Assembly: GCA_030789695.1 (NCBI GenBank)
Contig: CM061141.1
Coordinates: forward strand, 274,009,655 to 274,073,654
DNA length: 64,000 bases
Direction: 5' to 3'
Source of the DNA: Scilla litardierei
Taxonomy: Eukaryota > Streptophyta > Magnoliopsida > Asparagales > Asparagaceae
In this document: one piece after another, positions 9,193 to 54,583 of the stretch
Layout of the letters: every line of letters starts with the position of its first letter
How positions within the stretch are numbered: position 1 is the stretch's first letter
Position numbers and translations under genes: made by a program
The notes under the pieces: generated by a model
The model's input: the letters and a program-made list of their open reading frames with translations, nothing else
Database searches by the model: none
Told to the model about the DNA's origin: nothing

Positions 9193-9579
9193 CCCAGTTT
9201 TTGCCCTAGTTGAGAATAACTTTTTGATCCTTTGGCAGCCTTTTTAGAGAGATTTTTAGGTAATTAGATTTAGGCTTTTTGGGAGATTAGAAAGGCTACT
9301 TTTGTTGGATGCTATTGGATTCTCATTGGTTTGTCTCTCTTCTTGTCAAAAACCCTATTTTTGTTGATAATTTCTCTATTGCATTGAATTGTGTTGATTT
9401 TGCTATTGAATTTCTTATGAGTTGCATGATGATTAGTGAGTAGTTTTATTGTCCTAGGGCATAGGGATGAACCCTATGAACCCCATTTCTGGATTGTGAT
9501 GAATTGGTGAAATTCTTGCTAGAATTGATTAGGGTTAGGTTGGGATTGATAAATTACGGATAGCTAGGGATTCATATCG

Positions 9580-9870
9580 ATTGGGATTTACAAGAGATTG
9601 GGTCCCAATTGATAGGAAGCCCTAGAAATTCGATTTAGATTTACGATTGGACTCCTCTAGGATTGGTTTGCAAGAGATTGGACCAAGGCTAGGGTTTTCA
9701 ATCGTAATTCTATACCAATACCCGTTTGCAAGAGATTGGACGGGTAGGAACTATCTCAACCTAGGTCGTAACTCGAGTTTGCACGAGAGTGGGCTCGAGA
9801 TACGATTGAACGATGATGTCGATCCTAATGCTAGTGGCTTAGGCTAGGGTTTGCAAGAGATTAGGCCCTA
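9580..9870 (+). other. Five-hairpin RNA array, LTR A1
   Basis: Five stem-loops share the core TTGCAAGAGATTGG but have different stems: ATTGGGA/TCCCAAT (9580-9609), TTGGT/ACCAA (9663-9686), TACCCG/CGGGTA (9719-9746), CTCGAG/CTCGAG (9772-9799) and TAGGGT/GCCCTA (9845-9870). The core can fold as CAA-GAGA-TTG with a GNRA tetraloop. It lies downstream of the TATA-like box, so it should be in the transcribed leader. Confidence 0.8.
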
Positions 9871-10241
9871 TCCTAGGTTCGCTATAGACCGGCAATAGCG
9901 CAAGAGCGTGAGCTTGATTCCTCATCTAGTTGCGACTAGTTCACCTAAGATTCAAGTCTAGCAATGATGAAACCTACGAATCACAACGATGAGATACGGT
10001 CCATAGCGGGGATTCCCTATCCCTAGGCGTTTTTATTTTATTGATATTTCCATAGACATTCGAACGATTGTGACAATTTCACCCCGAATCATTCTCTATC
10101 ATTTTGATAGCTAGGTATTGGAAAGAGACACTGTCATTGTTCCTCCCTGAGTTCAATACCCGCTCGCCGCTACACCGTGCGCTTGCGGTATGACTATGAG
10201 TCGCTTGTCCCGGGTGCGTGTGCATACCGGGGCTACGATCA

Positions 10242-17292: not shown

Positions 17293-19010
17293 CTATGCAA
17301 GTGTAGGGCCCCGAACAGACAGATTGGCACAAAATAAAGGGGAGGCAGAAGCAGTTAAGGACGACATCAAGCAGAGGCACACCTCTGGGGGTGGTGATGG
17401 GTCCGTGGTGAGATCAATGGTGGCAGTGGAGAGCTCAGCAGAATATAACACCAGGGCAGACAGGGGATCTAAGGTGAAGTCCAACCCAGAAGTGGTAGAA
17501 ACAGGCTCTACAGAAGCCTGTGAAAGTGAAGCACTGAGTGGTGCAGAGGGGGTCACAGTGTCTGGCCTGGGTGGTGGATCATGTGCAAGGATCACTGGAG
17601 GGGGTCCACGTGTCCTCAGGAGATCTATGATGGATGCCAAGTCTGACTCGACTCGTGAGTGGTGTGTCGCTGTCGAGCATACAAAGTCGTCGAAATCTCT
17701 CCGAAGGAGAGAAGTCGACTCCTCTAACACTGTCAAGCGACCATCTGTAGTACGGGAGTCGGATGGAGGGCAGGGGATATGTCTGTGAGTCACCACTCTC
17801 GTGAATCGGTCCCGTGCAGCTGAAGCACGGTGCCGAGCGTGGAAGGTAGGAGAGGGTAAGCTCGAAGGTAAATCAGCTGTGGCAGAAGAAAGAGATGTCA
17901 TCGACACAGAAGAGAAGACAGGCGTCGACACGCTATCAGTGAAAATGGCAGCGGATGAGGAGGATGTGGTGCCAGAAAGTGGAATGTGTGGGCCTAAAGA
18001 GATATGAACTGATGCTATAAGGTCCGAAAGAGGTAGGAGGGTGGGGGCTGGGTCATGCATGGGAGAATCAAGATCTATGGGGTCGTCAGCAAAAGGTAAA
18101 TCGGTGCCCTCCGACACCGATACAGTGGTCGAAGAAATTTGAGTCTCGGGGCAAGAGGTGGGGACAGTCCCCGAAGACTCGACGGTGGTAGATACGGTGG
18201 ATACATTGGTGGTGAAAGAAGCAGCTCCAGAAGATGATGGGTGAGCAGGTGGTACTGGGAGGCCGGTAACTAAGGCAGCAATGTCATGTAACTCAAACTC
18301 CGGGGAGCGTGGCACTGGGTCATCGACGGCTGCCTCGACCTCAGGGGTGGAAAGACATGAGGAATCATCCAGTCAAGCTGGACAGCTGGGATGTGTGTGA
18401 GGTGAGGGGTAAGATGCACCATATGGGGAGTATAGTGGGTGCCTACGAGATAAAGCTAGTGACGATCCCCGTATGGTCGGACAATATGCATATGCTTGAG
18501 CACACCGATGGTCATGCGCGTCGGGCCAACAGGGCGGGAAGGTTGTCTGGAAGGTGAATATCAAGCATCCTAGCAAAAATGGTGAAGAAACCACCGCAGC
18601 AGATATCGGTGGTGAAGTAGGTGGTGGCTGTCTAGTAAAGGCGGTGACACAACCAGTGGACTGCGTCAGAGAGCAGGAAGGGTCGTAGGGAGCCGTCAGG
18701 ATGAAATAGAAGAGGCCGGGTCATACCCATAAGATGGGTAAGCTCAGGGAGGGACATGGTCCCGACCTCAGGCCTATAGAAGAGAGTGAAAGCTAAGTGC
18801 CTCTGAGCATAACGAAGGCATGGGTGCATGATACACGACGCCTTCGCCCGACTAGGGCGATACTGAGGAAGGCCAGAAATACGCTCCCAAAAGGCTCGAG
18901 CATCAAATGAGTCAACGTCAAAGAGTGGAGAAAAGGCTGCTCTGGGCTCGGGTACGGCAGGGAAGTGAAAGTACTCGCGGATCATGCCAAATGTGATAGT
19001 GCAATCATGG
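17293..19010 (-). pseudogene. Athila ORF (extra ORF) of element B, broken
   Basis: The segment 18985-18632 encodes an Athila-type domain (FDARAFWERISGLPQYRPSRAK, MHPCLRYAQRH, THLMGMTRPL) that aligns with the plus-strand ORF at 49674 on. A stop (LCHRLY*) and frame changes follow through 18320. An open stretch from 18315 to 17293 gives the Ser/Pro/Thr-rich part, a heptad-like helix (RLTVLEESTSLLRRDFDDF) and a Pro/Thr-rich tail ending at TAG just before a CTTGGGGGAGG box. The N-terminus is lost in the gap. Known as the Athila ORF-1 family; role unknown. Confidence 0.75.
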
Positions 19011-19510
19011 NNNNNNNNNNNNNNNNNNNNNNNNNNNNNNNNNNNNNNNNNNNNNNNNNNNNNNNNNNNNNNNNNNNNNNNNNNNNNNNNNNNNNNNNNN
19101 NNNNNNNNNNNNNNNNNNNNNNNNNNNNNNNNNNNNNNNNNNNNNNNNNNNNNNNNNNNNNNNNNNNNNNNNNNNNNNNNNNNNNNNNNNNNNNNNNNNN
19201 NNNNNNNNNNNNNNNNNNNNNNNNNNNNNNNNNNNNNNNNNNNNNNNNNNNNNNNNNNNNNNNNNNNNNNNNNNNNNNNNNNNNNNNNNNNNNNNNNNNN
19301 NNNNNNNNNNNNNNNNNNNNNNNNNNNNNNNNNNNNNNNNNNNNNNNNNNNNNNNNNNNNNNNNNNNNNNNNNNNNNNNNNNNNNNNNNNNNNNNNNNNN
19401 NNNNNNNNNNNNNNNNNNNNNNNNNNNNNNNNNNNNNNNNNNNNNNNNNNNNNNNNNNNNNNNNNNNNNNNNNNNNNNNNNNNNNNNNNNNNNNNNNNNN
19501 NNNNNNNNNN
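19011..19510. other. Assembly gap (500 N)
   Basis: Exactly 500 undetermined bases, which looks like a fixed-size placeholder. The strand of the Athila sequence changes across it (minus on the left, plus on the right), so at least two elements meet here. Confidence 0.98.
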
Positions 19511-19798
19511 ACCTTAATTCAAGCCTTGCAACATTGAGATTTATGATCCACAAGGATAAGTGATGATCCGTAGTGGGGATTCCCTAGCCCTAGACACTTT
19601 TATTATATTGAATTCTATTTGTTATTTGAAAGACAGTGACATTATTATCCAAACCATTCCATTCTACCATCAATAGCTAGGTGATCGATATAGAGTACTG
19701 TCATTTGTTCTCCCTGTGTTCGATACCCGCTCGCCACTTCACCGTGCGCTTGCGGTAAGGCTACAGTCGTTTTTCGGGTGTATATCCGGGCGCGATCA
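19511..19798 (+). repeat. Athila-type LTR C, 3' end
   Basis: It ends with the conserved Athila LTR tail (TACCCGCTCGCC, CACCGTGCGCTTGCGGTAAG, then GGGCGCGATCA). No primer site follows; the next base begins satellite sequence, so this is a 3' or solo LTR inserted in the satellite. Confidence 0.8.
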
Positions 19799-20195
19799 AC
19801 ACACTCGGTGTGTAAACCACATGGAAAGTAAATGCCCATGTGGGGTTTGTTCTGTCCAACTTTATAATTCTTGGCACCCGATCTATTAGATCGGGTACCA
19901 CCTTTTCCACATCATTCTCTATAGATAGGGAATCATGTTTATCAGGTGGCAACTGATATAATAGATCAGGTGCAAGACACAATCGGCGTGTAAACCACAT
20001 GGAAAGTAAATGCTCCTGTGGCGCTTGTTCTTTCCAACTTTACATGGATTGGTACATGATCTATTAGATCTGGTGCCACCTTTTCCACGTCATTCTCTAT
20101 GGATATGTTATCATGTTTATCAGGTGGCAACTGATATATTAGATCAGGTGCAAAACACAATCGGCGTGTAACCCACTTGGAAAGTAAATACCCCT
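19799..20195. repeat. 178-bp tandem satellite, ~2.2 copies
   Basis: The box ATCGGCGTGTAAACCACATG and its variants start units at 19800, 19978 and 20156, a period of exactly 178 bp. Within each unit are two dyads around GATCTATTAGATC and GATATATTAGATC. The array is cut on the left by LTR C and on the right by a Sirevirus LTR. The length is typical of plant centromeric satellites. Confidence 0.85.
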
Positions 20196-22262: not shown

Positions 22263-24696
22263 TGTAACAGCCGCTTTTCGACCGTTCGTATTTCTGCGTG
22301 TACGTACGTTTTCGTACATGTATTTTATTCGACTCCTTCTTGGATACGGACTATGCGATGTGATATGCCATTGTGACTGCAAGGAAGAGTAGTTATTTGT
22401 GGGATTTTTAGTGAACGACATTTCACGGGTCGTTCTCCCACAAATCGAGTTTGATTACAGGATCGACGCAGCTTTAGACGTAGTCGCCGGATCTTTTATT
22501 TTTTCTGTTTGTTTTCCATAGACCAAACGTGCGATTGACCACTGTATCCCCGAGCCTCTCTTTGTCACGGCAGTCCCCATATTTTTTTCATATTTTTCTG
22601 ACACTCCTAGCCCACCCAAATCACTAATCAAATTCAAAGCCGATTAGCCTTAATCAATTTCGAAAATTTCAATCCCTAATCAAATCTTGATAGAATCCCT
22701 CATACGTATCATGAGGGATTACTTCTTCTATCCACACTCAAAACCACACCCTCTCCTCTCACACTCTCTATCCTAGTCATCCCTAATTATACCCCCTTTC
22801 ATATGCATTTAGCAACTTCTCTCTTTTAAAAACCAAACCCATTTCCTACCCTAGCCATTCACGCATGAGAACCAGGCCGCCACTTCTTCTTCATTTTCTT
22901 GCGCCACCCTCCTGCCTCCGGTGAGCCACCGGCCACCCCAAGATCCGGCCACCCTCTCCTCCACCTTCTCCTCTCCCCTCTCCTCTCTCTCACCCATTAA
23001 AATCCTCAAGAAAAAGCTCCAAGCTGCATGTTTTGACAGCAGAATGCCGCCGCCGGAAAAGCCCATGCCGCCTCCGCTCCGACCACCCCCTCCGGCCGAA
23101 TCCTCCTCCCTCGGGTCCCCCTCGACCTCCCCTAGTCGTTGCACCCATCCTCCCTTATTCCTCACTCCTCAAAACCCCTCAAAACCGCATTGAAACACCA
23201 AGAAGCTGCCGTTTTTCCATATCTGGCGCCCGCCGGAAAACCCCAACACCCGCCACTTTCGGCGGCCTTCGGCCACCCACTCCACCACCGTCAGACTCCT
23301 ATCGAACCCCTCAATTAACTCCAACTCCTCTTACCCTCTTCCTTCATCTCTACCTCCTCGAAACATCTCTCAAACTCGACTTAACGACAGTTTTACAGAT
23401 CTGCGCCACCGCCGGGAAAACTCGCGCCCACCGGCCATCCGACCACCTACGACGACCACCCTACCACCGTTGGACTTCTATCGAAACCCCCTACCAACTA
23501 CAATTTCTCTCACGCTCATATCCCACCTGTAGCTCCTGGAAAATCCGTCGAAACCAAGCCCAGCTGCTGTTTTTGACAGATCTGTGCGCTGAACTTCGAC
23601 GCCCGCGCACGATCACCTCCGACCACCCCCAGTGACAACTCTACTGTCGTTGGCTTCGTCTTGAAGTCCTTTGCCTTTTGCAACTTCTTGTTGTCGCTGA
23701 TCATCGCTGGAATTCCGCTGAGACGTGCGACAAAGAGCGTTGCACGAATCTATCCTCTCCGGCTTCTCACGGCCACCCACCACCGTACGCTCACGTCGCC
23801 GGCCACCCACCAGGCCGAGCATCTTCCTCTGGTCCTACTTCATCCACCGACAGCCCCCTTGAACTCTCGGAGTTCATGCGCGTTGTCGCACGCACGTACT
23901 TTTAGCCGATGTCGCCGTTATTGTGAAGATCTGTTGCGCTACTCGCAACGGGAGGAGGATCGCTATTAGCTCGCTGATTTCGCGTGACTACCCCAATGTC
24001 CCAAGGTACCTCGTTGTGCTACCCACGGCCGAGGAATTCCAGACGACGTCGACGTTTCGTCGTTCAGACCCGACTTCCGCTTGTTGGACGACATCACGAG
24101 GTTGGTTTCCCTAACGAGTAGTAAAACCCACAACGTAGCTAACCAAAACCTAAACTAAAATTGGTCAACTTGAACTAAATTTATTTTCAGCATCTGTAAA
24201 ATGTTGCCACTATAGGAAAGATCGACGATCGGACGAATTTTCTGTGCACATAGGGTAGACGTCGATCTAGACTGAACAAAACAACAAAAACGTGACTTTT
24301 TGACTGTTAGGGTAGTCCCGCCAAATTTAGAAACAAACCGTATTAAGATTGACAAATAGTGCGATCTGACATCGCCGTGATCCTGTTTCAGACGGACCAT
24401 CACCGACACGACGTTTTAACGGGACGCTCCGGACAGACGACGCACTCGCCACCGCAGGCAAGTGTACTCACTTGTACTTTTGGCCGTGTCTAGGCCATAG
24501 ACTCTTAGAATTGTTAAATGTGAACAAAGAGATCCGGACGTGAAATGATAGCGTCTGGGACTCCCTTGATGGCTTAGACTTGACGACGAAGTCTAAGCGC
24601 AACAACAGCAACAATTGACACCTTAGGGTTTTTCTGTGTGTGCGTGAGTGTGGACCCCCTAGAATAACAATTTCTTGTGTGTCATGTCGTGTCCTG

Positions 24697-24917
24697 TTAC
24701 ACAAAAAGCCTCCGGGCGTTTCGGATTCTCTCCACACGAGAGTGATCCCTATTACACAAAAAGCCTCCAGGCGTTTCGGATGCTCTCCATGCGAGAGTGA
24801 TCCCTGTTACACAAAAAGCCTCCGGGCGTTTCGGATGCTCTCCACGCGAGAGTGATACCTGTTATACAAAAAGCCTCTGGACGTTTCGGATGCTCTCCCA
24901 ACGAGAGTGATCCATGT
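24697..24917 (+). repeat. 55-bp tandem repeat in X-a, four copies
   Basis: The unit begins TTACACAAAAAGCC and includes GGGCGTTTCGGATGCTCTCC and GAGAGTGATCC. Starts at 24697, 24752, 24807 and 24862, a strict 55-bp period. X-b has three copies at 58690-58855. Confidence 0.9.
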
Positions 24918-28550: not shown

Positions 28551-28914
28551 GCACTATGGGTTGCAACGTTGCAACTTGCAATGAAGCGGAGCGGAGCGCG
28601 GGTGCGGGGCTTGGCCTCGTGATCACTCCATATTTTACACCTTTTTTCTGCATGTTTGCATGCCATTTAGATCGCTCAAATCGTGTTTTTCACGTTTATT
28701 CGACAATATTGCGATGCTTTTCACGATTTGTTGTTTTTGTCGTATTTCAGGAGATTTGGAGCTATTTGGAGTGATTCTGAGATGCACCCACTCCAGAGTG
28801 TCACCAACGACTCTCTTGAGGGGTATTTTGCGATTGGAGAGGAGTGGAAGAAGAAAGAACGTCGTAGGAGCGACGATGAGGCGAAAATATGAAGTTTGGG
28901 CATTTTGAGCATTT

Positions 28915-29273
28915 CACTCGGCCGAGTGAAGGAGTCACTCGGCCAACCATAGGAAGCCCGCTCGGCCGGCCAGATCAGACACGCAACAGGCGTGCACTCG
29001 GCCGAGCATCGCCAAGTCGCTCGGCCGAACCACGGACACCCACTCGCCCGAGTGGCGTCAAGACGGCGGCAGCAAAAATCCCAGACTTACTGTTTCTGTA
29101 CAGTCAATTTCTGAGTCGTCGTCCGCCCGAGTGACAATCGACGTCCGCCCGAGTGACTAAAGGTCGTCCGCCCGAGTGACCTCCGAGGAGACGACCCCCG
29201 AGACCCCCAACTCTCTGTTTCTGTACAGGGTTCGTCACTCGGCCGAGTGACATTTGTCACTCGGCCGAGTGAG
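28915..29273. repeat. CACTCGGCCGAGTG palindrome cluster, LTR A2
   Basis: About twelve perfect or variant copies, including a run of CGTCCGCCCGAGTGAC direct repeats at 29120-29180. Confidence 0.9.
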
Positions 29274-29752
29274 CCACGCTGCCTGAAGCGTAAACTGCGG
29301 ATTTGAGGCTGTGCAGGGGCATTTTTGTCAGGATTTTTTTGGGCGATTTTGGGGGGTATTTAACCCCAGTTTTTAACCTAGTTCAGAGAGCTTTTTCAGA
29401 ACTTTTTGCAGCTTTTTAGATTAACTTTTTAGGGATTAGATTTAGCTTTGAGGGAGGAGAGAAAAGTGAGATTTTGTTGGATGCTTTCTTGTTCTTCATT
29501 GGTTTGTCTCTCTCTCCCTCCAAAAACTCCATTTTTATTGATATTTTGAATATTGCTATGAATTCCATTGATTTTATTTGTGAATTTCTATTGCATTCTA
29601 TTATGAATTGTGAGTAGTTCATCGTCTTAGGGCGTAGGGATGAACCCTACGAGCCCAATTTCGAATTTGTGATGAATTGGTGAAACCATTGCTATGATTG
29701 ATTAGGGTTAGTTTGGGATTGCTATAATACGAATAGCTAGGGATTCACACCG

Positions 29753-30045
29753 ATTGGGATTTGCAAGAGATTGGATCCCAATTCGATAGGAAGCCCTAGA
29801 TATTCGAATTGGGTTGCAATTGAATTCCTTCGGAATCGGTTTGCAAGAGATTGACCCGAAACTAGGGTTTTTCGTTTGCAATTCTATACCAATACCCGTT
29901 TGCAAGAGATTGGATGGGTAGGAACTATCCCAATCTAGGTCGTAGCTCGAGTTTGCACGAGAGTGGACTCGAGATACGATTGAACGATGATGTTGTTCTT
30001 CACGCTAGTTTGCCTAGGTTAGGGTTTGCAAGAGATTGGACCCTA
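29753..30045 (+). other. Five-hairpin RNA array, LTR A2
   Basis: Stems: ATTGGGAT/ATCCCAAT (29753-29782), TCGG/CCGA (29836-29859), TACCC/GGGTA (29893-29920), CTCGAGT/ACTCGAG (29946-29973) and TAGGGT/ACCCTA (30020-30045). All enclose TTGCAAGAGATTGG or, in the fourth, TTGCACGAGAGTGG. Relative to A1 the second stem changes T-A to C-G on both sides. In the fourth inner stem CAA/TTG becomes CAC/GTG. Confidence 0.85.
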
Positions 30046-30420
30046 CCCTAGGTTGGCTATAGACCGGCAATAGCGCGAGAGCGTGAGCTTGGTTTCACAT
30101 TTAGTTGCAACTAGTTCACCCAAATTTCAAGTCTAGCAATTGTGAAACCCACGAGTCACAATGATGAGATACGGCAAGTAGCGGGGATTCCCTATCCCCT
30201 AAGCGTCTTTATTAATTTGTTAATTCTTTTATACATTTGAACGACTGTGATCGCACATTTGCGAACATCTCTCGACCCTTCCTATAGCCAGGTTACCGAA
30301 GAGGACACTGTTATCAGTGCTCCCTGTGTTCAATACCCGCTCGCCGCTACACCGTGCGCTTGCGGTAAGACTATGATCGTCGCCGCTCCGGGACGTGTAT
30401 CCGGGGCGCGATCAAGTTTT

Positions 30421-30438
30421 TGGCGCCATTGCTGGGGA
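30421..30438 (+). other. Primer binding site (tRNA-Asp type)
   Basis: TGGCGCCATTGCTGGGGA lies six bases after the 5' LTR. It matches the TGGCGCC...GGGGA site usual for Athila/Tat elements, which pairs with a tRNA (Asp) 3' end. Confidence 0.85.
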
Positions 30439-30554
30439 GGCAATAGTGTTTGATTCCTATAACCTTGCTATTTTTCTTTTTCGTTCTATTATTTTTATTT
30501 TGTTACACCCTTCCGTTGTTCTAACTATTTCTTTGAAACTCTGTTTTCCCTTGC

Positions 30555-33316
30555 ATGTACACGAGATCCTCGGTGAACCCCGAAGAGATACTATACGATC
30601 CGGAGATCGAGCGTACATTGAGGAGGATCCGAGCGGAGAGGAGACCCGTTACAGAAGGAGATTTTATGACCCATCCTGAGACACCTGAAGAATTGGCGGC
30701 GCGAATGGCGAGGATTATTTCCATAAGAGATAGGCTTCGGCCTAAGACTTCTTCCACGACCTCGTCCATCGCAATGCCGGAGTTGGCGACCGACAAAAAT
30801 TTTGAGTTGAAGACCGGATTGGTGGTCCTTATGCAACAAGATCCTTTTCATGGGAACTCCAATGAAAACCCTCATTACCACATCCAGCTCTTCTTATCAA
30901 AGTGTGCCACCTTCCAAATGCCTGGCGTCTCTGAGGATGCTATCAGACTGCGCCTCTTCCCTTTCACACTCAAGGACAAGGCATTATATTGGTTGAGAAC
31001 GCAAGCTGAAGGAATCTTCACCACTTGGGATGAGTTGGCGAGTGCCTACGTCGACAAATTTTACCCGCCCTCCAAGACGGTGAAGATTAGAAGTGCTCTC
31101 ATGTCCTTCAAGCAAGGACCTCAAGAGACTCTCTACGAAGCATGGGAGCGCTTCAAGGACTTGCAACGTCAGTGCCCTCATCATAGCATTGAGGATTGGG
31201 AGCTTGTCCATAGCTTTTACAATGGACTCCAACCGGGGACGAAGCAGATCATTGATGCCACGGCGAATGGAGCCATTTTGTCGAAGACTCCCGATGAAGC
31301 TACGGCCTTGCTTGAGGAGATGGCCTCGAACAACCAACAATGGGGGGACGAGCAATGACATTCTTCATCCTCCTTGAAGCCCACAAGTATCTATGAGGCT
31401 AAGGCCGTGGCGGAGCTTTCTAGCAAGTTTGACTCTCTCCATAAGGTAGTGGAGAGATTGGAGAAATTTATTACGGAGCCTCAGGGAGCCCCTTCTACAC
31501 CCACGCCGACAAATCATATGAGCGATTGGCAAGACCAATCCCAAGCAATGTATGTAGGAGGAGAGCAAGGAGAAGGAGCTTTGGAGCAAATCCAATACGT
31601 CACAGGGAATTCTGGATATTGGGCCAATCCGGCTGCTAGAAACCATCCGGGTTTCTCATATGCTAATAATGATGGTGCACTGAACCCCCTGTAACACCAA
31701 CCTCCTCAAGCTCGAGCTCCACCACCACAAACAAATTATCCACCAAGGGGGCCACCGCAACAAAACTTCCCACCGAGGCAACAAGTGGGACCTTATAGGC
31801 CACCCGGGTATAATCAAGGGTGGAGAAATCCCAACCCACCGCAAGCTAAACCACGTCCGGATTTTGAAGCTAAGGTGGATGAGTTTATGGTGGAACAACG
31901 AAAGATCAATGCCACATTGAAGGCGGGACAAGATTCTCTCGCCACCGTCGTCGCTTAAATTGGGGAGCAACTTACGTTGCTCAATAAAAACAATCAACAA
32001 TTGCCGGATCAACCCGAGCCGAATCCACGGGGCAACACCGGCCATATCAATACTGTCGTTACGGTTACTAAAAGAGGAGGGAAGGATACCACTCCCCCCA
32101 TGACTCAAGTCAGGAAGCCCATGGTGGAGAATCTAGAAGAAAGCGAGCCGGTAATTGAAGTGGCAAGGGAGAAGGAGCCGCAAGAAGGAGAAAAATCTAG
32201 AATGGAGGAGCTTATCGATGAGCGCCGATTTATGCCACCGGTGCCCTTCCCTCAACGGCTAGCTAGAGCCAAGATGGAGAAACAGCTAGCCAAGTTTCTC
32301 GAGTATTTGAGAGGGGTGAGCATCAATATCCCCTTCCTCGATGCTTTAGTGGAAATCCCATCTTATGCCAAGTTCTTAAAAGACTTGATCACGGGAAGGA
32401 AGAGGAAGGAGAAGATAATGCTCGCAGAGGAAGGGACTTGGTTCACAAAGAGGGAAAAGGAGCCCGCCAAGTTTAAAGATCCAGGGAGTTTCCGGATTCC
32501 TTGCACTCTAGGCGGCGTCCCCCTACAAAAGGCATTGGTAGACTTGGGGCTAGTGTTAGCCTCATGCCCCTCTCCATGTTTCGGAAGTTGAATACCGGCA
32601 CGGTTTTGAAGCCTACCGACATGCGGATTCAACTAGCGGACGGGAGGATTACAAGACCGGTTGGGATCGCAGAGGACATCCCACTCCAAGTTCCGGGGGG
32701 CATATGTTTGCCATGCGATTTCGTGATAATGGACATCAAGGAGGAGGGCGATACATCACTCATACTCGGACGCCCATTCCTCGCCACCGCCGGTGTCATC
32801 GTCGATGTGCGGGAGGGGACCCTTAACTTGAACGTCGGCAACATCGAAGTGGAGCTTCATATACCGAAGGCAATGAAGCACATGCCGTATCACGAAGAAC
32901 TATATTACATGGACCTCCTTGATGAGGTCATTGAAGAGGTGATCCCCCATTCCATCGGTGCACCCCACGAAGATAGGTTCGAAGAAGGCCTAGATTTGGC
33001 CGAGGAAGAGAAGACAGAGCACTCCCCCGATTTCTCCATGGCAATTGATGATGGCGATGCTGATGTCGCAAGAATACGGGAGCTCTACAAGCTCTCAAAG
33101 TTGAGGACTCCAAAGAAAGCTCCACCGATACGACGATCGGTGTCACCGGCAAAGAGGAAGACCGGAGCAAGCTCTAGCTTGGGGGAGACACCCCCCAACA
33201 TTGCCCGAGACAAAGGGGCGCTGAGGAAGACCACACCCCACAATGATCCAAATTCGAGCGGTCTTCCGGGAAAATTTGACGGGTGCATCTCGTATGCACC
33301 CAACATCAAGCGCTAA
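30555..33316 (+). pseudogene. gag-pro: Athila gag-protease, broken
   Basis: From ATG 30555 the Gag frame gives a typical retrotransposon capsid: HYHIQLFLSKCATF, FPFTLKDKALYWL, WDELASAYVDKFYPPSKT, RFKDLQRQCPHH and HSFYNGLQPGTK. The same frame is stopped by TGA 31356-31358, TAA 31692-31694 and TAA 31956-31958. A one-base loss at 32544-32550 shifts to the protease frame, which keeps DLGASVSLMPL-type residues (the D now in the other frame), ILGRPFLATAG and NVGNIEVELH. It ends at TAA 33314-33316. Gag builds the particle; the aspartic protease would mature it. With three stops and one frameshift it cannot make a complete product. Confidence 0.9.
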
Positions 33317-33649
33317 GTTGAAGATTTAAAGGGATCGAGCTCAAGACCTTAAACGAGCGCTTGTCGGGAGGCAACCCGACGGTTATCGCATTATTTCTAT
33401 TTTAGTTTTTATTTTTTGTTTTAGGCTTTATTATTGTTTTTGAGTCGTTTGCCCGAAAAAATTTTGACAACGAGTCCTATTTTCTTTGACAGGAGAGGAG
33501 AACGGTATATCTATCATATGGAGGATGACCAAGACAAAGAAGAGCGCTCCAGGAATGCGCTCGAGGCTTAGGAGAAGGAAGATATCAACTGGAGGAAGAA
33601 AAACAGAGATTAGAGCCAAAACGGAGCCAAACAGCAGAAAACAGGGCCT

Positions 33650-36111: not shown

Positions 36112-38420
36112 TCAGCTCTCACGCAATCCTTGGGATGATAAGTGTTTATAAAACACATTTCTGGGGATCGCTTTCGTAAGCTGATCCTCTATCATCTCAT
36201 GCGTAGATATGTACCTTATGTCTACCTTCTTGGTTTTATCATAGTTGTTTGCAAATCTGCAGTTCCTTTAAGATACTGCATTATCCTCTTAACTGCTTTC
36301 CAGTGTTCTTGCCCTGGGTTGGATTGGTAACGACTTACCATTCCAACGGCAAAACAGATGTCCGGTCTTGTATGCATCATAGCGTACATAAGACTATCAA
36401 CTGCACTGGAATATGGAACTTTTTCCATAATTTCCTTTATCCTTTTGGTTCTTTGGACACGATTCCAGATATAAATTATCGCATATGCTTATATGAATAT
36501 CAATGGACTTGCAGTCCTGCATATTAAATCGTTCTAGAACCTTCGTTATATAAGTCTCTTGTGAAAGAGAAGAAGTTTCTTCGAACGATTCCTTGAAATC
36601 TTAATTCCAAGGATATATGTGGCTTCCCCATGTCTTTCATCTCAAAACTGATGAAAGTCAAGCCTTGATATCCATCACAAAGCCCTTGTCATTTCTGGTT
36701 AACATGCTTGCTTTTAATCCTCTTGATATATACGCAGTTATCTTCATCAAGCATGGAAAATCCATTTGATAAGACAACTTCTTGAAATCGTATATACCAT
36801 TGCCTCGAGGATTATTTAAGACCATATATGGACATACGAAGTTTACAAACCTTATGTTCGTTTCCTTCTTTTACAAACCCTGTTGGTTGTTCCATGTAGA
36901 TCTCCTCGTCCAATTCTCCATTGAGAAAGGCAGTCTTTACATCTATCTGATGTAATTCGAGGTATAAGCAAGCTACCATTGCCAGAATCAGGTGAATCGA
37001 GGTAAAACGCACAACAGGTGAGAAGGTCTCTTCGTAGTTTATCCCTTCCTGTTGCGTATAACCTTTCGCGACAAGGCGAGCTTTATATCTATCTATAGAG
37101 CCATCAGCCTTATGCTTGATCTTGAGAACCCATTTGTTCCCAATTGCTCTATGTCCTCTGGGTAAGTTAACTAAGTCCCAGACTTGGTTAATTTTCATGG
37201 ATTTCAATTCCTCCTTCATCGCTTCCATCCATTTGTCTTTTGCAGGGCAAGATACGGCATGTTTGAAAGTAGCAGGCTCGTCATCTTCTTGTAATAAAGT
37301 CATAAAGGTTTGCGGAAATTCATCCTCAAATCTTAGAGGAGCCAACCTTGTATGACTACTATGTCGTATTTGAGATTCTTTAAGTCCTTGTTGACTCGAA
37401 TTTAGAATTGGATCAATTCTAATATCACTCCCACTTGGAATGTCGTTAGAATTGCTCCCACTTGGATCATTATTCCCGTATGGAATAGGATAATCGTCAT
37501 TCGTATAATCCATTGGTGAAGGTTGAAACGTATTTTCATTTTCACCAAGAATTCTCCCACTCGAATGAGGTAATCCTTCTTGATCATAAATCTCAAATTA
37601 AAACTTATTGATTGATATTCACCGCCCCTATCGGTTCGCAAGACCTTAATCTTGCGATCTAATTGATTCTCCACTAAACTCATATAGTTTTTAAAGCAAG
37701 CCAAAGCTTCACTTTTGTGGGATATCAAATAGATATGTCCGAATCGGGTGAAATCATCAATAAAAGTGATGAAATAGGACTTTCCGCGTCTTGTCTTGAC
37801 ATTCATCGGACCACATATGTCCGAATGGATAAGCTGTAATGGAACCTCGGCCCTTGTGCCGGTTCCAAACGGCTTGCGACAAGATTTCCCCACAAGGCAA
37901 TGTTCGCAGGTCGACATTTCAACCTTTGAAACATTGGAAAGAAGGCCACGTTTGGCAAGTCTATCCATACGCGTTGGTCCAATATGACCAAGCCTTGCGT
38001 GCCAACAAATCGCATCAGACTCATAAGTCTTAGAATTTGCAATAAGGAAATTTTCATTACATGAGGAATCATACATTGTACTCATTACAATAAATCCTTT
38101 AAATACAAACCCAGTACCAATAAGAGTATTATTACAACTTAAGTCCACATTACAATCATGAAAAAACCAGTTATAGCCAAGACCCATTAATACGACCACA
38201 GAAATTATATTCCTTCGAATATCTGGAGCGAAGAGGACATCATGAAGTAGGAGAGTGTGGCCGTTGTCCAAGACTAGCTTGCAAGTTCCAACGCCTTTCA
38301 CTTCAACACGTGTGTTGTTTCCTACATAGATCCACTTCGCTCCTTGGGGTATCCGGTGATACTCCACCGAGGACCGTCTGTCCCTTGCTATGTGGTCGGT
38401 GGCACCTCGTCCCCTCCACT
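36112..38420 (-). pseudogene. pol: Minus copia pol remnant
   Basis: After the gag stop the protease frame starts at GATDHIARD; the catalytic D-S-G is missing because the preceding 85 bp are absent. Integrase keeps HARLGH, CEHC, HSDICGPM, FIDDFTRF and DRGGEYQS but loses its catalytic E in a ~490-bp deletion. RT keeps KWVLKIKHK, DVKTAFLNGE and YMEQPTGF, then has a stop where the sister has CAA (LK*SSRQW, 36812-36814). A small deletion removes YVDDIL, and a ~340-bp deletion with filler removes most of RNase H. The end HLSSQGLRES and TGA (36114-36112) is kept. Every pol enzyme is inactivated. Confidence 0.9.
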
Positions 38421-39253
38421 CGTACACGAACGAGCATAGTGACCGAGCTTGTTGCACTTGAAGCACTTGATCCTCTTCAAGTCTTTATTCTTGTGCCATT
38501 TCTTGTGCCCACCCTTATGTTTGGGTTTCTTGGTAGACTCATGTTGCTTATTATGTTCATTAGTGAACTTCGAACGATCTTTCCGTTTCTTTCCCCCGTG
38601 TGAGGAACTAGCAACCATGTGCACTTCTGCACTTGGCTTGGCAGCCGCAAGCCGCTCTTCCTCTAATTCGAGGTGCTTGGAAACATCGCTGAAGGTCTTG
38701 ATGCTCTCATTGTGAGTGAGACGCATCTTCATTTGATCCCACCCATTTGGTAGGGAACGTATAACTGCTTGGATTTGTTGCTCATCAGTGAGCACATGAC
38801 CTGCATCCTTTAACTCTGAGATAAGGTTCGCCATATGTCGCAGATGTTTCCCCATGGAATGATCTGGACGTTTCTTATATGTATCGAATCTTATAGTCAA
38901 GGCTCGAAGTTTGGACACCGATGTGCCACCAAACTTCTCCTCAAGCTTGGACCATATGTCTATGGCTAAGTCATGTTCCCGGAGGATGCGCATTATGTCA
39001 TCAGCCATACTGCTTAATAACGTAATGCGTGCTATCTTATTCTTCCGAGACCAAGCATCAAAAGCTTCCTTGTCTCGTCTGTGTTGGGCCGTAGTGCCCA
39101 ACTCGGGTTCAATCATTACGTTCTTTAGAGTTTCGAGCACTTCTTGCTCCTCTAAAACATATTGTATCTTGATGGACCAAAGTTTTAATTATCGTCGTTG
39201 AGTTTTTCACCTCTGTTTAACTCAGCGACGATATTCTTTGAAGCGGAAGACAT
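38388..39253 (-). pseudogene. gag: Minus copia gag with spliced-type end
   Basis: The start is ATG 39253 (MSSASKNIVAEL), as in the sister. A one-base loss after NDDN makes an immediate TAA, so only a start further down (39140) reads the rest. The body has the copia capsid helices (IWSKLEEKFGGTSVSKL, LPNGWDQMKMRLTHNES), a Lys-rich stretch and the zinc knuckle CFKCNKLGHYARSC. The frame ends GGDEVPPTT and TAG at 38390-38388, exactly where splicing of the sister's 85-bp GT-AG segment would end Gag. Gag packages the element RNA in the cytoplasm. Confidence 0.85.
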
Positions 39254-39254
39254 T

Positions 39255-41175
39255 TTACTTTTAAAATGCTGCAAAAGACACAAAACCGAAGGTTTGATCA
39301 AAACATTGCATAAAAATTCTTAAAATATATAACTCCCACTTGAAATGATAATAGAATATCCCATTTGGATAGTTCTAAAAATTCAAATCCCACTTGGAAT
39401 TATATTATATTTGATAAGTTACTTTCGAAAAATATTGAAGATGTTGTTCTAGAATCGAAAAGGTCTCTTCGATTCCAATCACCATTTAGAACAACCTTCA
39501 ATATTCCCCCATCACTTATCAAACAATAGTACTCTTATAGTACTAGCAGCGGAAAACGAGTTTGAAAACGTATTTTTCAGATATAATTCCCACTTGAAAT
39601 GATAATAGAATATCCCATATGGATAGTTCTAAAATCAACTCCCACTTGGAATGATATTCATAATTTGATAAGTTACTTTCGAAAAATATTGAAGATGTTA
39701 CTCTAGAATCGGAAAGGTCACTATGTTTCCAATCACCATCTAGAGTAACTTTCAATATTTCTCCCTCACTTTATCAAATGTTAGTACTCTTATAGTACTT
39801 TGCAGCGAAAAAGCGTTTTTGAAAACGTATTTTTCAAAACGTTTGAAAACGTATTTTTCAAAAAAAATGTATATTTCAACTTAGCACCCTTATGATACTA
39901 GTGAAATATTCGGCACTTCCTGACCATTTGTCGGGAATGAGCCGTAGCCGTGCCAAGGTCGGATCCCCCTTTTGGGGATTTTTCTGCAAACTATCGTCGT
40001 TGGCTCCCGTATGGATCCAGGCGTTCCCCCCCCCCCCGTATGAGAGAATTTTGGCTCAGACGACTGTCGTTTGGCCCCATATGGGCTAGTCGGCACGTTC
40101 AAGTTCGACCAAGGCCTTTTGCCGAATTGGTCTGAAACTTCTCCCGGCCAGGGCCTCTGCCCTGGCCGAGGCTGGCCAAGGGCCGGCCAGGGCCTCTGCC
40201 CTGACCGGCCAGGGGCCCTGGCCCCTCGGCCAGGGCCTCTGCCCTGGCCGAGGCCGGCCAGGCCCTGGCCGAGGCCAGGGCATTGGCCCTGGCCACTGCT
40301 AGGGCCTGGCCGGCCCTGGCAGAGGCCAGGGCGCCGGCCCTGGCCGAGGCCAGGGCCGGCCAGGCCCTGGCAGTGGCCAGGGCCGGCCAGGGCACCGGCC
40401 CTGGCCTCTGCCAGGGCCGGCCAGGTCGGCCCCTGGCCTTGGCCGGGGCCGGCCACTGCCAGGGCCGGCCAGGTCGGCCCCTGGCCTTGGCCGGGGCCGG
40501 CCACTGCCGGCCTGGCCTTGGCCGGCCACTGCCGGCCTGGCCATGGCCGGCCATGGCTTGGCCATGGCCGGTCATGGCCAAGGCCATTTTGGCCTTGGCC
40601 GGCCATGGCCCTTTGGCCATGGCCGGCCTCCCCTTGTGTGGGGTGGCCACACACCCCGCCGGAGGGGGTTGTCGTGGTGGTTATTGGCCGTAGCCAACTC
40701 CCTCCGCATGGGGAGGGGGGTGCATGGCTTTCATATCCCATTTGGCCATGGTGCACATGCACTAAAATTCATCTTCCCCGATGGGAATAACCACCACCTT
40801 CTTCTCCGGTGTAGCACCCGTTCGTCGAGGAAGTAGTTGTCCTCCAATGGTCGTGTGCCAAAAAATGAACCCACTTCAAAAATTCGTAAACTACGCGCTC
40901 CACATGAAGAGAGTTCACATTCCCTATGAATGGAGACTCAGCATCCATGAAGAGAGCGAGCTTGACGATATGAACGGTCGGTTCTTCCCGTCACGGAGAG
41001 TTCCTACCATATCCATAATGATAGGATACCCTAACGTGAAAAGAACAACCGCTGCGTTCTCTCCGTCACGAAGCGTTCCTACCATATCCGTAATGGTAGG
41101 ATACCCATTCGTGAAAAAGACAACGACTCGTTCATAGTTTTGACGGGGCGACGGTCTGACCGGAGCGAATCCGTA
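39255..41175 (-). other. Minus copia leader with GGCC-rich expansion
   Basis: Untranslated leader of ~1.9 kb, against ~1.24 kb in the sister. The extra length is mainly 40146-40632, a degenerate tandem array of CTGGCCGAGGCCAGGG-like units. Near 39790-39870 short repeats of GAAAACGTATTTTTCA occur, as in the sister at 43285-43335. Near 40924-41110 a ~65-bp unit (CGTCACGGAGAGTTCCTACC) is tandemly repeated. Confidence 0.8.
40146..40632. repeat. GGCC-rich tandem array
   Basis: Nearly 490 bp made of GGCC blocks separated by two to eight bases, with inverted versions (CTGGCCGAGGCCAG). All six frames are open over much of it because of composition. It is absent from the sister element. Confidence 0.9.
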
Positions 41176-41190
41176 TGGCTCTGATACCAA
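41176..41190 (-). other. Primer binding site, minus copia
   Basis: On the minus strand TTGGTATCAGAGCC follows the LTR end CCTACA directly; it fits initiator tRNA-Met. Confidence 0.9.
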
Positions 41191-41796
41191 TGTAGGATCC
41201 TGCCAAAACAGAGTTAGGATCGATAAAAGAAGTTGAGACTTACGCTTGCGTATGCGGCACGGTAGTCTACGAACTTCGCCTTCGGATTCGCCACGACGGA
41301 TCGAGTCTTCTCACGAACGGAGTAAGGCTACTAAATCCACAATCTAAATCTCTACTTTTAGATTAAGAACTTGGATAAAGAGAGAAGAAGGATTTCGGCA
41401 GAGCTTCGCTAGAATGAAATGCATGCAAGAATGCCATGCAAAAGTGTAAGTCAAATGGCTAACCCTTGGGTCTTATTTATTGCCCCCAAGGTAGTTATTT
41501 TAGGAGTAATTGTTCCTTTGGAACAATTTAACTAAGGTGTACCATCGTACATGGCATATTATAAGCTTAAGTTGTACCATATGCATGGTACAATATAAGC
41601 TTAAGATATTATCCCTTTATTAGCCATATGTCGCATGCACTTATGCACATATAATGCGACTTTCCCATCATTCTAAAGATCCTCACCGCAAGGGAACATA
41701 TTCCCTTTGTTCACGACTTCGTGTACGCGACGTTCGAGGTCTGTATTCCCTCGTACATCCCCTACAAGGGTGTACTAACGTCTTCCATATCCAACA
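41191..41796 (-). repeat. Minus copia 5' LTR
   Basis: 606 bp, same ends and features as the 3' LTR at 34497-35101. Confidence 0.92.
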
Positions 41797-41862
41797 TCAC
41801 CCCCACACAGCCACAGCCTGCCGATCCAATATACCCACAGCCACTCCCAGCCGAGCCCATCC

Positions 41863-42389
41863 TGTTGGATATGGACGACATGAATACACCCATGAGGGGA
41901 TGTATGAGGGTATACGGACCTCAGATGTCACGTGCACGAAGGCGTGCACGAAGGGAACCTTTTCTCGTGTGAAAAGGGCCACTCGATAAGTGGAAAAAGC
42001 CACTCGATAAGTGGAAAAAGTCACTTTATAAGTGCATAAAGGCACTTGATAAGTGAATGAAGAAGAGGATAAATGAATGCACTTTTATAGGCTAATAAGC
42101 TTATAATTGGTTATTTCCTACAATAACTACCCCTAAAGCCTATAAATAGGACCCAAGGGTAAGGCTTTCATTCCACACTTGGCATCTTATGTTCTTCTTC
42201 TCCCTTCCATTAAAATCCTCTTCTAAATAGAGATTTAGGCGGTGAAACTCTGATTCGATCCTCCGTGACGAAGTATCGACCGTTGTGGCGAATCCGATGG
42301 CAAAGTTTAGAGATTACGATGCCGCTTACGCAAACGTAAGTCTCTACTTTATTTCGATCCTAACGTCGCTGTTTTGTCAGGATCCTACA
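41863..42389 (+). repeat. Plus copia 5' LTR
   Basis: TGTTGGATATGG...GGATCCTACA, 527 bp. It lacks ~22 bp present in the 3' LTR (about 49084-49106), which include GCCATAAGTTTGC. TATA box CTATAAATAG at 42140-42149. Confidence 0.93.
41979..42055. repeat. CACTNNATAAGTG dyad cluster, plus copia LTR
   Basis: Four consecutive dyads: CCACTCGATAAGTGG twice, CACTTTATAAGTG and CACTTGATAAGTG. They lie ~85 bp upstream of the TATA box. Repeated in the 3' LTR at 48886-48960. Confidence 0.85.
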
Positions 42390-42404
42390 TTGGTATCGGA
42401 GCCA
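42390..42404 (+). other. Primer binding site, plus copia
   Basis: TTGGTATCGGAGCC directly after the LTR. It has one mismatch (A to G) from the usual TGGTATCAGAGCC, which may weaken initiator tRNA-Met priming. Confidence 0.85.
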
Positions 42405-47400: not shown

Positions 47401-47749
47401 CGCACTTTCAACTATGGAAGCCGAGTTTGTAGCATTTAGCATGGCAGTCCAAGAGGCTGTTTGGCTTAGGAAATTCTTAGACAGGCTAATTGATGCAAGT
47501 GACTCAGGTGATGTACCTATACACAGCGACAGTCAAGCATCTATACCCTATGTCAAAGATCCTAAATTCCATTGTAAGACCAAACACATAGATATCCGCA
47601 ACAAATTTATAAAAGACTATGATAAGACCAAGAAGGTAGACATAAGGTACATATCTACGCATGAGATGATAGCGGATCCGCTTACGAAGGCGATCCCCAG
47701 AGATGTGTTTTACAAACACTTATCATCTCAAGGATTGCGTAAGAGCTGA
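44491..47749 (+). pseudogene. pol: Plus copia pol (protease, integrase, RT, RNase H)
   Basis: Protease: IIDSGATDH (44562-44589) is intact, with a one-base loss near 44633 that shifts the frame to a stop at 44660. Integrase: HARLGH after a TGA at 44981-44983 (sister TGG), CEHC, HSDICGPM, DRGGEY and the catalytic stretch PQQNGVAERRNRT. RT: a TGA at 46334-46336 (GNK*VLKIK; sister TGG), then MDVKTAFLNGE, SIYGLKQSS and YVDDILIAGND. RNase H: YTDADWAGD, MEAEFVA, DSQASI and HIDIRNKF, ending at TGA 47747-47749. All domains are present, none can be made from one frame. The three stops are all C-to-T type changes. Confidence 0.92.
44493..44577 (+). other. Candidate intron at gag-protease junction
   Basis: Begins GTAACTTG and ends TTGATTCAG, 85 bp. 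It is A/T-rich, in frame when kept, and absent at base precision from the minus copia. Its removal shifts the frame so that Gag stops seven codons on. It contains the first part of the protease active-site codons (IIDS). Confidence 0.75.
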
Positions 47750-52767: not shown

Positions 52768-54583
52768 TGATCACTCCATATTTTACACCTTTTTCTGCAT
52801 TTTTGCATGCCATTTAGATCGCTCTAATCGTGTTTTTCACGTTTATTCGACAATATTGCGATGCTTTTCATGATTTGTTGTTTTTGTCGTATTTCAGGAG
52901 ATTTGGAGCGATTTGGAGTGATTCTGAGATGCACCCACTCCAGAGTGTCACCAATGCCTCTCTTGAGGGGTATTTTGCGATTGGAGAGGAGTGGAAGAAG
53001 AAAGAACGTCGTAGGAGCAACGAGGAGGCGAAAATATGAAGTTTGGGCATTTTGAGCATTTCACTCGGTTGAGTGAAGGAGTCACTCGTCCGACCATAGG
53101 AAGCCCGCTCGGCCGACCAGATCGGACACGCAACAGGCGTGCACTCGGCCGAGCAACGCCAAGTCGCTCGGCCGAACCACGGACACCCACTCGCCCGAGT
53201 GGCGTCAAGACGGCGGCAGCAAAAATCCGAAACTTACTGTTTCTGTACAGTCAATTTCCGAGTCGCCGTCCGCCTGAGTGACAATCGACGTCCGCCCGAG
53301 TGACAAAGGACGTCCGCCCGAGTGACTAAAGGTCGTCCGCCCGAGTGACCTCCGAGGAGACGACCCCCGAGACCCCCAACTCTCTGTTTCTGTACAGGGT
53401 TCGTCACTCGGCCAAGTGACATTTGTCACTCGGCCGAGTGAGCCGCGCTGCCTGAAGCGTAAACTGCGGATTTGAGGCTACGCAGGGGCATTTTCGTCAG
53501 GATTTTTTTGGGCTATTTTGGGGGGTATTTAACCCCAGTTTTTAACCTAGTTTAGAGAGCTTTTTCAAAACTTTTTGCAGCTTTTTAGATTAACTTTTTA
53601 GGTATTAGATTTAGCTTTGAGGGAGGAGAGAAAAGTGAGATTTTGTTGGATGCTTTTTTGTTCTTCATTGGTTTGTCTCTCTCTCCCTCCAAAAACTCCA
53701 TTTTTATTGATATTTTGAATATTGCTATGAATTCCATTGATTTTATTTGTGAATTTCTATTGCATTCTATTATGAATTGTGAGTAGTTCATCGTCTTAGG
53801 GCGTAGGGATGAACCCTACGAGCCCAATTTCGAATTTATGATGAATTGGTGAAACCATTGCTAGGATTGATTAGGGTTAGTTTGGGATTGCTATAATACG
53901 AATAGCTAGGGATTCACACCGATTGGGATTTGCAAGAGATTGGATCCCAATTCGATAGGAAGCCCTAGATATTCGACTTGGGTTGCAATTGAATTCCTCC
54001 GAAATCGGTTTGCAAGAGATTGGATCGAAACTAGGGTTTTTCGATTGCAATCCTATACCAATACCCGTTTGCAAGAGATTGGATGGGTAGGAACTATCCC
54101 AATCTAGGTCGTAGCTCGAGTTTGCACGAGAGTGGACTCGAGATACGATTGAACGATGATGTTGTTCTTCACGCTAGTTTGCATAGGTTAGGGTTTGCAA
54201 GAGATTGGACCCTACCCTAGGTTGGCTATAGACCGGCAATAGCGCGAGAGCATGAGCTTGGTTCCACATTTAGTTGCAACTAATTCACCCAAATTTCATG
54301 TCTAGCAATTGTGAAACCCACGAGTCACAATAATGAGATACGGCAAGTAGCGGGGATTCCCTATCCCCTAAGTGTCTTTATTAATTTGTTAATTCGTTTA
54401 TACATTTGAACGACTGTGACCGCACATTTGCGAACATCTCTCGACCCTTCCTATAGCCAGGTTACCGAAGAGGACACTGTTATCAGGCCTCCCTGTGTTC
54501 GATACCCGCTCGCCGCTACACCGTGCGCTTGCGGTAAGACTACGATCGTCGCTGCTCCGGGATGTGTATCCGGGGCACGATCA
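52768..54583 (+). repeat. Athila main 3' LTR (A3)
   Basis: TGATCACTCC...GCACGATCA, 1816 bp. It contains one more 21-bp CGTCCGCCCGAGTGAC unit than A2. Palindrome cluster 53062-53441, TATA-like box 53526-53532. Confidence 0.92.
53922..54214 (+). other. Five-hairpin RNA array, LTR A3
   Basis: Same five hairpins as A2. The second stem here is TCGG with TCGA, three pairs plus a G-U wobble. Confidence 0.8.

What the first reader, a model, noticed from the sequence alone, without database searches (positions are those of the whole stretch)
29753..30045. Array of five co-varying stem-loops with a common GAGA-capped core in Athila LTR leaders
Seen: in each of three Athila LTRs (9580-9870, 29753-30045, 53922-54214) TTGCAAGAGATTGG occurs five times, and each time the bases either side are complementary but different from hairpin to hairpin (ATTGGGAT/ATCCCAAT, TCGG/CCGA, TACCC/GGGTA, CTCGAGT/ACTCGAG, TAGGGT/ACCCTA). 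The core folds as CAA-GAGA-TTG, a GNRA tetraloop on three pairs. Compensation is visible: the second stem is TTGG/CCAA in A1 and TCGG/CCGA in A2; the fourth core is CAC-GAGA-GTG instead of CAA-GAGA-TTG; other differences are A-U against G-U. A constant loop on variable stems is what selection on RNA shape leaves. The array is downstream of the TATA box and upstream of the primer site, so it should be in the genomic RNA leader. Inference: a packaging, dimerisation or translation element with five docking sites. I know of no description of it.
Basis: partly seen in the sequence, partly recalled or inferred. Interest (0 to 1): 0.9.

Follow-up and report, generated by a model that had tools for sequence, protein, structure and literature searches.

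The report
RNA hairpin array in retrotransposon leader
A family of plant retrotransposons carries, in the untranslated start of its RNA, a row of hairpins that share one tip but have differently spelled, matching stems, which points to selection on an RNA shape, most likely repeated docking sites that mark the RNA for packaging.

Summary
Each of three Athila-like LTRs has five copies of a core (TTTGCAAGAGATTGG; copy four TTTGCACGAGAGTGG) inside differently spelled complementary arms. Two of the LTRs end one element, so the window gives two lineages. Three more LTR copies, from 300 kb sampled in the same genome, carry all five. Between three diverged copies 0 of 75 core positions differ, spacers 18-25%; arms defined on the window predict the held-out L176: 9 of 10 changed pairs still pair, 44% expected. 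Of 158 chance core matches elsewhere 2 have the first five flanking pairs; of the 30 hairpins 28. G-U variants outnumber A-C, favouring sense RNA. A sixth GAGA-capped hairpin follows; a sister family keeps CAC-GGGA-GTG at a similar distance from the primer site. The GNRA reading is likely, not proven: a slipped register competes. Full compensations within the five hairpins are too few to be significant alone. Function is untested. I favour a multivalent packaging or dimerisation signal (0.45). Nine library searches listed no description.

The parts
28619..30414 (+). LTR (upstream copy of one Athila-like element) that holds the array
   Evidence: 95.7% identical to 52767-54583; primer site follows
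29357..29363 (+). TATTTAA, candidate TATA box, conserved in the three LTRs (also 9185 and 53526)
   Evidence: no transcription start was mapped
29752..29783 (+). hairpin 1; core 29761-29774
29810..29886 (+). hairpin 2 with its basal helix (29810-29824 with 29871-29886); core 29841-29854; across six copies the basal helix has 5 pairs changed on both sides
29893..29920 (+). hairpin 3; core 29900-29913
29940..29979 (+). hairpin 4; variant core CAC-GAGA-GTG at 29953-29966
30013..30052 (+). hairpin 5; core 30026-30039
30073..30084 (+). candidate hairpin 6, GCGC-GAGA-GCGT, no UUUG bulge
   Evidence: probability 0.34 here, 0.79 in L165, 0.71 in L176; loop AAGA in the 8408 LTR and a stem change in the 52767 LTR
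30421..30438 (+). primer binding site TGGCGCCATTGCTGGGGA (tRNA-Asp type from recall)
9575..9877 (+). five hairpins in the LTR 8408-10245; cores at 9588, 9668, 9726, 9779, 9851
53917..54221 (+). five hairpins in the LTR 52767-54583; cores at 53930, 54010, 54069, 54122, 54195
30555..31358 (+). gag reading frame downstream of the leader
   Evidence: Pfam Retrotrans_gag E 2.8e-20

Best explanation
It is a cis-acting element of the genomic RNA leader of an Athila-like Ty3-type retrotransposon: five, probably six, stem-loops that present the same purine-rich tip (U-UUG-CAA-GAGA-UUG-G-A) on stems whose letters are free as long as they pair. Shown: the repeated core, the matching arms, their retention in three diverged lineages, the sense-strand bias. 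Inferred from position: transcription from the conserved TATTTAA, so that the array lies about 360-660 nt into the RNA and about 370-670 nt before the primer site. Inferred mechanism: the tips are repeated docking sites for the element's Gag (or for a second genomic RNA), so that several weak contacts together single out the genomic RNA for packaging or dimerisation.
For: Fold z -6.9 and -7.1. Across 15 window hairpins (11 distinct), 91.7% of cells pair and 24 cells differ on both sides against 7.7 shuffled, 0 of 500 shuffles reach either. Three more copies with all five hairpins, in 2 of 30 stretches of 10 kb. On six copies 96.9% of cells pair, against 18-51% with partners slid; 8 of 102 pairs changed on both sides (6 of 500 shuffles reach 8). 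Arms defined on the window copies (before L176 was fetched), tested on L176: 9 of 10 changed pairs kept, null 0.44, 0 of 20,000 trials as good; on L165b 7 of 7, null 0.61, P 0.0008. Core positions 0 of 75 changed in three comparisons (52767 LTR, L165b, L176), arms 11-18%, spacers 18-25%. Of 158 chance core matches 2 have the first five pairs, against 28 of 30 hairpins. A Watson-Crick pair alternates with G-U in 22 of 102 pairs and with A-C in 8; the reverse strand folds to -98 and -95 against -124 kcal/mol. Sister family L160a/L181 has CAC-GGGA-GTG at 442 and 410 nt before its primer site, against 457-463 for hairpin 4. Constant tips on free stems, near the primer site and before gag, fit docking; retroviral leaders use purine-rich loops for protein binding (PMC5086612, passages).
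Against: No binding or packaging data. The only CX2CX4HX4C knuckles in six frames of the window lie at 11957, 38424 and 44433, none in this gag part, so a nucleocapsid partner is not identified. If R spans the array, spliced RNA would carry it too. Double changes within the five hairpins are not beyond chance (P 0.06-0.54); the clear excess comes from helices chosen on the same alignment, 5 of the 8 such pairs lie in the basal helix of hairpin 2, and hairpins 1, 3 and 5 have none. The null spreads changes over the cores too, which flatters the result. In one search the number of pairs with double changes (7 against 4.9; 35 of 500) and of pair types (161 of 500), and of pair types (435 of 500), are not unusual. 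One of four single-fold tests showed no excess (11 of 23 kept, null 0.53). Two cores of the 8408 LTR and one of the 28619 LTR are changed. None of five other primer-site-like leaders has the array.
Confidence: 0.45

Rival explanations
1. Translation element: the hairpins recruit or bypass ribosomes so that gag is reached through a leader of about 1.2 kb with upstream start codons.
For: 12 ATG triplets between the inferred start (about 29388) and gag at 30555; long leaders with upstream frames and structure control translation in plant pararetroviruses (PMC5902531, title and start of abstract in listing).
Against: Five equal tips on separate stems do not look like one large shunt stem (recall). 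The ATG count was not compared with chance.
Confidence: 0.2
2. RNA function other than Gag or ribosome binding: first strand transfer, RNA stability, export or a host protein site, the hairpins perhaps lying in R.
For: The array lies in the LTR, so it may be at both RNA ends; position before the primer site.
Against: R is not mapped; none of these calls for five identical tips.
Confidence: 0.2
3. DNA-level sites: repeated binding sites or palindromes for host factors (the core's complement begins CCAAT).
For: The same LTRs carry palindromes (ACTCGGCCGAGT) upstream of the candidate TATA box. The reverse strand also folds better than shuffles (z -5.5 twice).
Against: A DNA site does not need arms that differ between copies yet match; G-U is tolerated more than A-C (the pair list was chosen partly by standard pairing, which favours G-U); the array lies downstream of the candidate TATA box.
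Confidence: 0.06
4. Old duplication with no present function: one hairpin multiplied and decays neutrally.
For: Only three lineages were compared; several window cores are changed.
Against: 0 of 75 core changes while spacers change 18-25%, and the held-out test. Changes between the two LTRs of one insertion, which should be neutral, are too few to judge (2 of 3 changed pairs kept).
Confidence: 0.03

Closest known systems
Retroviral packaging signals with purine-rich stem-loops (MMTV SL4 purine loop; review)
   Same: 5' leader stem-loops whose purine tips bind Gag (PMC8096270 and PMC5086612, passages)
   Different: Here the same tip is repeated five or six times on unrelated stems, upstream of the primer site and inside the LTR; Gag binding untested
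GACG tetraloops of alpha- and gammaretroviruses and Maedi-Visna virus
   Same: Tetraloop hairpins tied to packaging and dimerisation (PMC516450, passages)
   Different: GAGA (GNRA-type) loop, five or six copies, plant element, a conserved bulge below the loop
Hepatitis B virus dispersed packaging signals with -RGAG- loops
   Same: Several stem-loops with one purine loop motif read by the core protein (PMC8677749, passages); the core here contains AGAG
   Different: Those are dispersed over the genome, these are clustered in 300 nt; no common descent claimed
BARE (Ty1/copia-type) packaging and dimerisation signals of barley
   Same: Plant LTR retrotransposon said to have conserved dimerisation and packaging signals (PMC3735527, passages)
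   Different: The passages seen describe no hairpin array
Sirevirus palindromic repeat boxes
   Same: Repeated LTR motifs with dyad symmetry (PMC2829016, passages)
   Different: Those lie upstream of the TATA box and the symmetric part is constant; here the arms vary and the centre is constant

Membership tests
Retroviral-type packaging signal | Lies in the genomic RNA leader between transcription start and gag | tested here: inconclusive
   Downstream of a conserved TATTTAA and upstream of primer site and gag; start not mapped
Retroviral-type packaging signal | Several stem-loops with purine-rich loops | tested here: met
   (prediction and comparison, no probing)
Retroviral-type packaging signal | Binds Gag and is needed for encapsidation | not testable with these tools
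   no experiment; no CCHC knuckle found in this gag part
GNRA tetraloop hairpin | GNRA loop closed by a helix in most copies | tested here: inconclusive
   Loop letters GAGA in the 15 window cores; register probability 0.53-0.61 in 9 of 15, 0.29 (9588), 0.17-0.23 (hairpin 4, three copies), 0.00 (29841 and 9851)
Athila lineage of Ty3-type elements | gag, tRNA-Asp-type primer site, ATHILA ORF | tested here: inconclusive
   gag met; primer site present, tRNA type from recall; Pfam ATHILA 16.9 bits, below its cut-off 20.2; hence 'Athila-like'
Known Rfam RNA family | Match at gathering score in the leader | tested here: not met
   No leader match at gathering score; best weak match MIR5565, 22.6 bits against a gathering score of 80
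Retrozyme (hammerhead in LTR) | Hammerhead ribozyme | tested here: not met
   no hammerhead family among the matches

The most novel reading that the evidence does not exclude
An Athila-like lineage carries a multivalent genome-selection signal of six GNRA-capped hairpins in its RNA leader, grown by multiplication from one ancestral CAC-GRGA-GTG hairpin that a sister family still keeps singly at about the same distance from the primer site; it would be a packaging array of a form that my nine library searches did not list for any plant Ty3-type element.
Probability: 0.3. Interest if true: 0.8.

Novelty: new variant of a known kind. Interest (0 to 1): 0.62.

Why it matters
[quoted passage not shown] passage). 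A compact element whose tip is constant while its stems vary freely predicts precisely what is recognised, in an abundant family. It separates a recognised part (tip) from a scaffold part (stem) by natural variation alone.

Tried and rejected
Viral contigs: the core pattern gave 42 stretches, one match each, read as chance; gag and ORF-1 proteins and a U5 pattern gave no relative. These 159 stretches gave the chance control: 158 matches, one too near an end dropped. A looser scan of them (up to 3 mismatches) found neighbouring cores in 4 stretches, one of them (L110) with five at 21-base spacing; not followed up. Rfam: no leader family. Covariance model: in the window the 15 known hairpins and nothing else up to E 10; in L169 one weak match, 15.6 bits, E 0.23, read as chance. 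Five other primer-site-like places (L160 twice, L181, L184, L187, found with up to 4 mismatches; L187 with only 1025 bases upstream): no repeated core with complementary arms; L187 has a 13-mer three times without matching arms. The idea that L165 could separate packaging from translation was dropped: it still carries gag, split over two frames, and a protease domain. A first pair count with hairpin 4 shifted by one column was wrong and is replaced. A scan for repeated cores with distinct complementary arms: of 18 loci on the + strand the three arrays score 3, 4 and 2, but a GC-rich repeat at 40145 also scores 3, and so does one of 16 loci on the other strand, so that scan alone is not specific. 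In one search, of 11 windows of 300 columns along the LTR, the one at columns 300-600 (U3 palindromes) also showed an excess of kept pairs in both directions.

Full report
What is there. The LTR at 28619-30414 and the LTR at 52767-54583 are 95.7% identical over 1818 columns, run in the same direction, and bracket a gag frame (30555-31358, Retrotrans_gag E 2.8e-20), copia-type reverse transcriptase and integrase frames of nested insertions (37402-47749; the label copia-type is from recall of RVT_2) and a frame weakly similar to Pfam ATHILA (16.9 bits, cut-off 20.2). A primer binding site follows the first LTR at 30421. The LTR at 8408-10245 is about 78% identical to both and belongs to another element: the stretch before it (7354-8032) matches the stretch before the 52767 LTR. 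The name Athila-like rests on the weak Pfam match, the primer site (type from recall) and the layout.

The five hairpins. Each array has five cores, with start-to-start spacing 80, 58-59, 53, 72-73 in the three copies. The 14 bases are exact in 2, 3 and 4 of five cores; copy four reads CAC-GAGA-GTG in each LTR. Outward from the core, the first five positions pair in 14 of 15 hairpins, the exception being 29841 (its counterpart 54010 pairs). The stems of the five hairpins are different sequences: at four stem positions three or four pair types occur. The arrays fold with z -6.9 and -7.1. Rfam has no family for them at gathering score. A covariance model of the 15 hairpins finds those 15 and nothing else in the window up to E 10.

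More copies. The host genome is held but its search machine did not answer in 21 tries (listed in Tried and rejected). I took 30 stretches of 10 kb from it at places chosen blindly. Two hold arrays: L165 has two, in LTRs 97.2% identical over 1565 bases (the second cut by the stretch end), and L176 has one; the other 28 have none beyond one weak match (L169, E 0.23). L165 is 90% and L176 75% identical to the 8408 LTR, and both are about 78% identical to the 28619 LTR, so there are three lineages. The six LTR copies that reach the region have all five hairpins. A fourth LTR in the window ends at 19799, but its array region falls in a run of N (19009-19510).

Tests of selection. Arms were fixed on the window copies, before L176 was fetched. 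Relative to the 28619 LTR, 10 pairs changed in L176 and 9 still pair; random placement of the same substitutions keeps 44%, and none of 20,000 trials did as well; the other three references give 7 of 8, 10 of 11 and 11 of 12 (null 0.46-0.50). For L165b relative to the 52767 LTR 7 of 7 are kept (null 0.61, P 0.0008). The null also lets changes fall in the cores, where none are seen, which flatters the result. Against: among the five hairpins alone double changes number 1-3 per comparison between lineages, not beyond chance (P 0.06-0.54). With the basal helices 2-7 double changes are kept; against L176 from the 8408 LTR or L165b it is 7 of 9 (null 1.6-1.7, P 0.0003-0.0006), from the 28619 or 52767 LTR 2 of 3 (P 0.24-0.26); those helices were chosen on the same alignment. 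On six copies 8 of 102 pairs changed on both sides (6 of 500 shuffles reach 8), 5 in the basal helix of hairpin 2, 1 in hairpin 2, 2 in hairpin 4, none in hairpins 1, 3 and 5; the number of pair types is not unusual (435 of 500). With single-sequence folds, three of four comparisons between the 8408 LTR and the other two gave an excess of kept pairs (P 0.005-0.010) and one did not; the reverse strand gave none for kept fraction, and one for double changes (4 of 4, P 0.04). Site classes among the 52767 LTR, L165b and L176: cores 0 of 75 in each comparison, arms 9 to 15 of 85, spacers 30 of 167 to 42 of 166. Cores of the 8408 LTR (two) and 28619 LTR (one) are changed. Chance control: 158 unrelated matches to the core in bacterial, archaeal and viral DNA have 0 to 6 of 7 flanking pairs, 2 with the first five formed; of 30 hairpins 28 have the first five and 21 have 7 of 7.

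Which strand. Of 102 pairs, a Watson-Crick pair alternates with G-U in 22 and with A-C in 8; the list was chosen partly by standard pairing, which favours G-U somewhat. A DNA cruciform or antisense RNA would not favour G-U on this strand. The reverse strand folds to -97.9 and -95.4 against -124.3 kcal/mol twice, though it too beats shuffles (z -5.5 twice).

The tip. The core can close as CAA-GAGA-UUG (a GNRA loop above a UG bulge) or slip to U.G, U.G, G.U with an eight-base loop. On the 11 distinct window hairpins the GNRA register pairs 91.7% of cells and the slipped one 85.1%. Predicted probability of the GNRA register is 0.53-0.61 in 9 of 15 hairpins, 0.17-0.23 in the three copies of hairpin 4 (slipped 0.76-0.82), 0.29 at 9588, and 0.00 at 29841 and 9851. 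The A-U to C-G swap in hairpin 4 supports the GNRA register; the changes at 9588 and 9851 suit the slipped one but are absent from L165 and are probably decay. The tip sequence itself is kept, which suggests that something reads it.

Sixth hairpin and sister family. Downstream lies GCGC-GAGA-GCGT (30073-30084), predicted at 0.79 and 0.71 in L165 and L176 and 0.34 here; the other two window copies differ in loop or stem. Expected GNRA-capped hairpins number 1.7, 3.4 and 3.2 in the 28619, L165 and L176 leaders, against means of 0.06-0.11 in 24 shuffles each; in other leaders 0.6 (L160a), 1.1 (L181), 0.5 (L160b), 0.0 (L184) and 0.0 (L187). None of the five other primer-site-like leaders has the array. 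Two of them, L160a (gag piece 45% identical over 83 residues) and L181, are copies of one related family, with a leader patch at the same place that folds well (z -4.5 and -4.0 with 30 shuffles) and is 93% identical (278 of 298 columns) inside a 75% alignment. It holds CAC-GGGA-GTG (predicted 0.58 and 0.99) at 442 and 410 nt before the primer site, against 457-463 for hairpin 4. Common descent of that hairpin is plausible, not shown.

Position and mechanism. TATTTAA at 9185, 29357 and 53526 is conserved; the TATAAT at 29723 is not. With a start about 30 nt downstream, the array would be some 360-660 nt into the RNA, before primer site and gag. Constant tips on free stems are what repeated docking sites look like; in retroviral leaders purine-rich tips bind Gag (PMC5086612, PMC8096270), in hepatitis B virus several stem-loops share an RGAG loop (PMC8677749), and GACG loops are involved in packaging and may help dimerisation (PMC516450); passages only were read. 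Hence packaging or dimerisation at 0.45. Against it: no CCHC knuckle in this gag part, R not mapped, no experiment.

Print. Nine searches of the held library listed no description of such an array; (LTR retrotransposon, tetraloop, plant, leader) returned none; searches matched 785 and 1,118 papers with 20 and 12 listed. Only listings and passages were seen; most subscription papers are not held.

Noticed in passing
window 31083-31189 (-); L160 8819-8927; L176 4422-4528; L165 5924-6027: Rfam RF00097 (snoR71) matches the antisense strand of Ty3-type gag in four elements above its gathering score; some of the family's plant hits may be retrotransposon gag rather than snoRNA.
   Followed up: partly
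8929-9101, 29116-29180, 53267-53349: Repeats in U3 upstream of the candidate TATA box, many with ACTCGGCCGAGT palindromes, reminiscent of Sirevirus CGG-CCG boxes; L160a/L181 have CCGATCGG palindromes instead.
   Followed up: partly
window 19009-19799: End of a fourth, more diverged Athila-like LTR (about 73% identical), its array region lost in a run of N.
   Followed up: no
L165 3444-10000: An element whose 3.2 kb between the LTRs holds gag (split over two frames) and a protease domain; it aligns only to window 30401-33558, so pol seems absent, though pol itself was not searched.
   Followed up: partly
window 24693-24917 and 58688-58850: 55-base tandem repeats, each with a potential CTCTC/GAGAG hairpin.
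   Followed up: no
L160 and L181, about 600-250 nt before the primer site: A well conserved, well folding leader patch of a sister family, with different hairpins at the same place.
   Followed up: partly
L110 (a Bacteroidaceae contig), 167-265 on the minus strand: Five core-like 15-mers (up to 3 mismatches) at 21-base spacing, perhaps a coding repeat.
   Followed up: no
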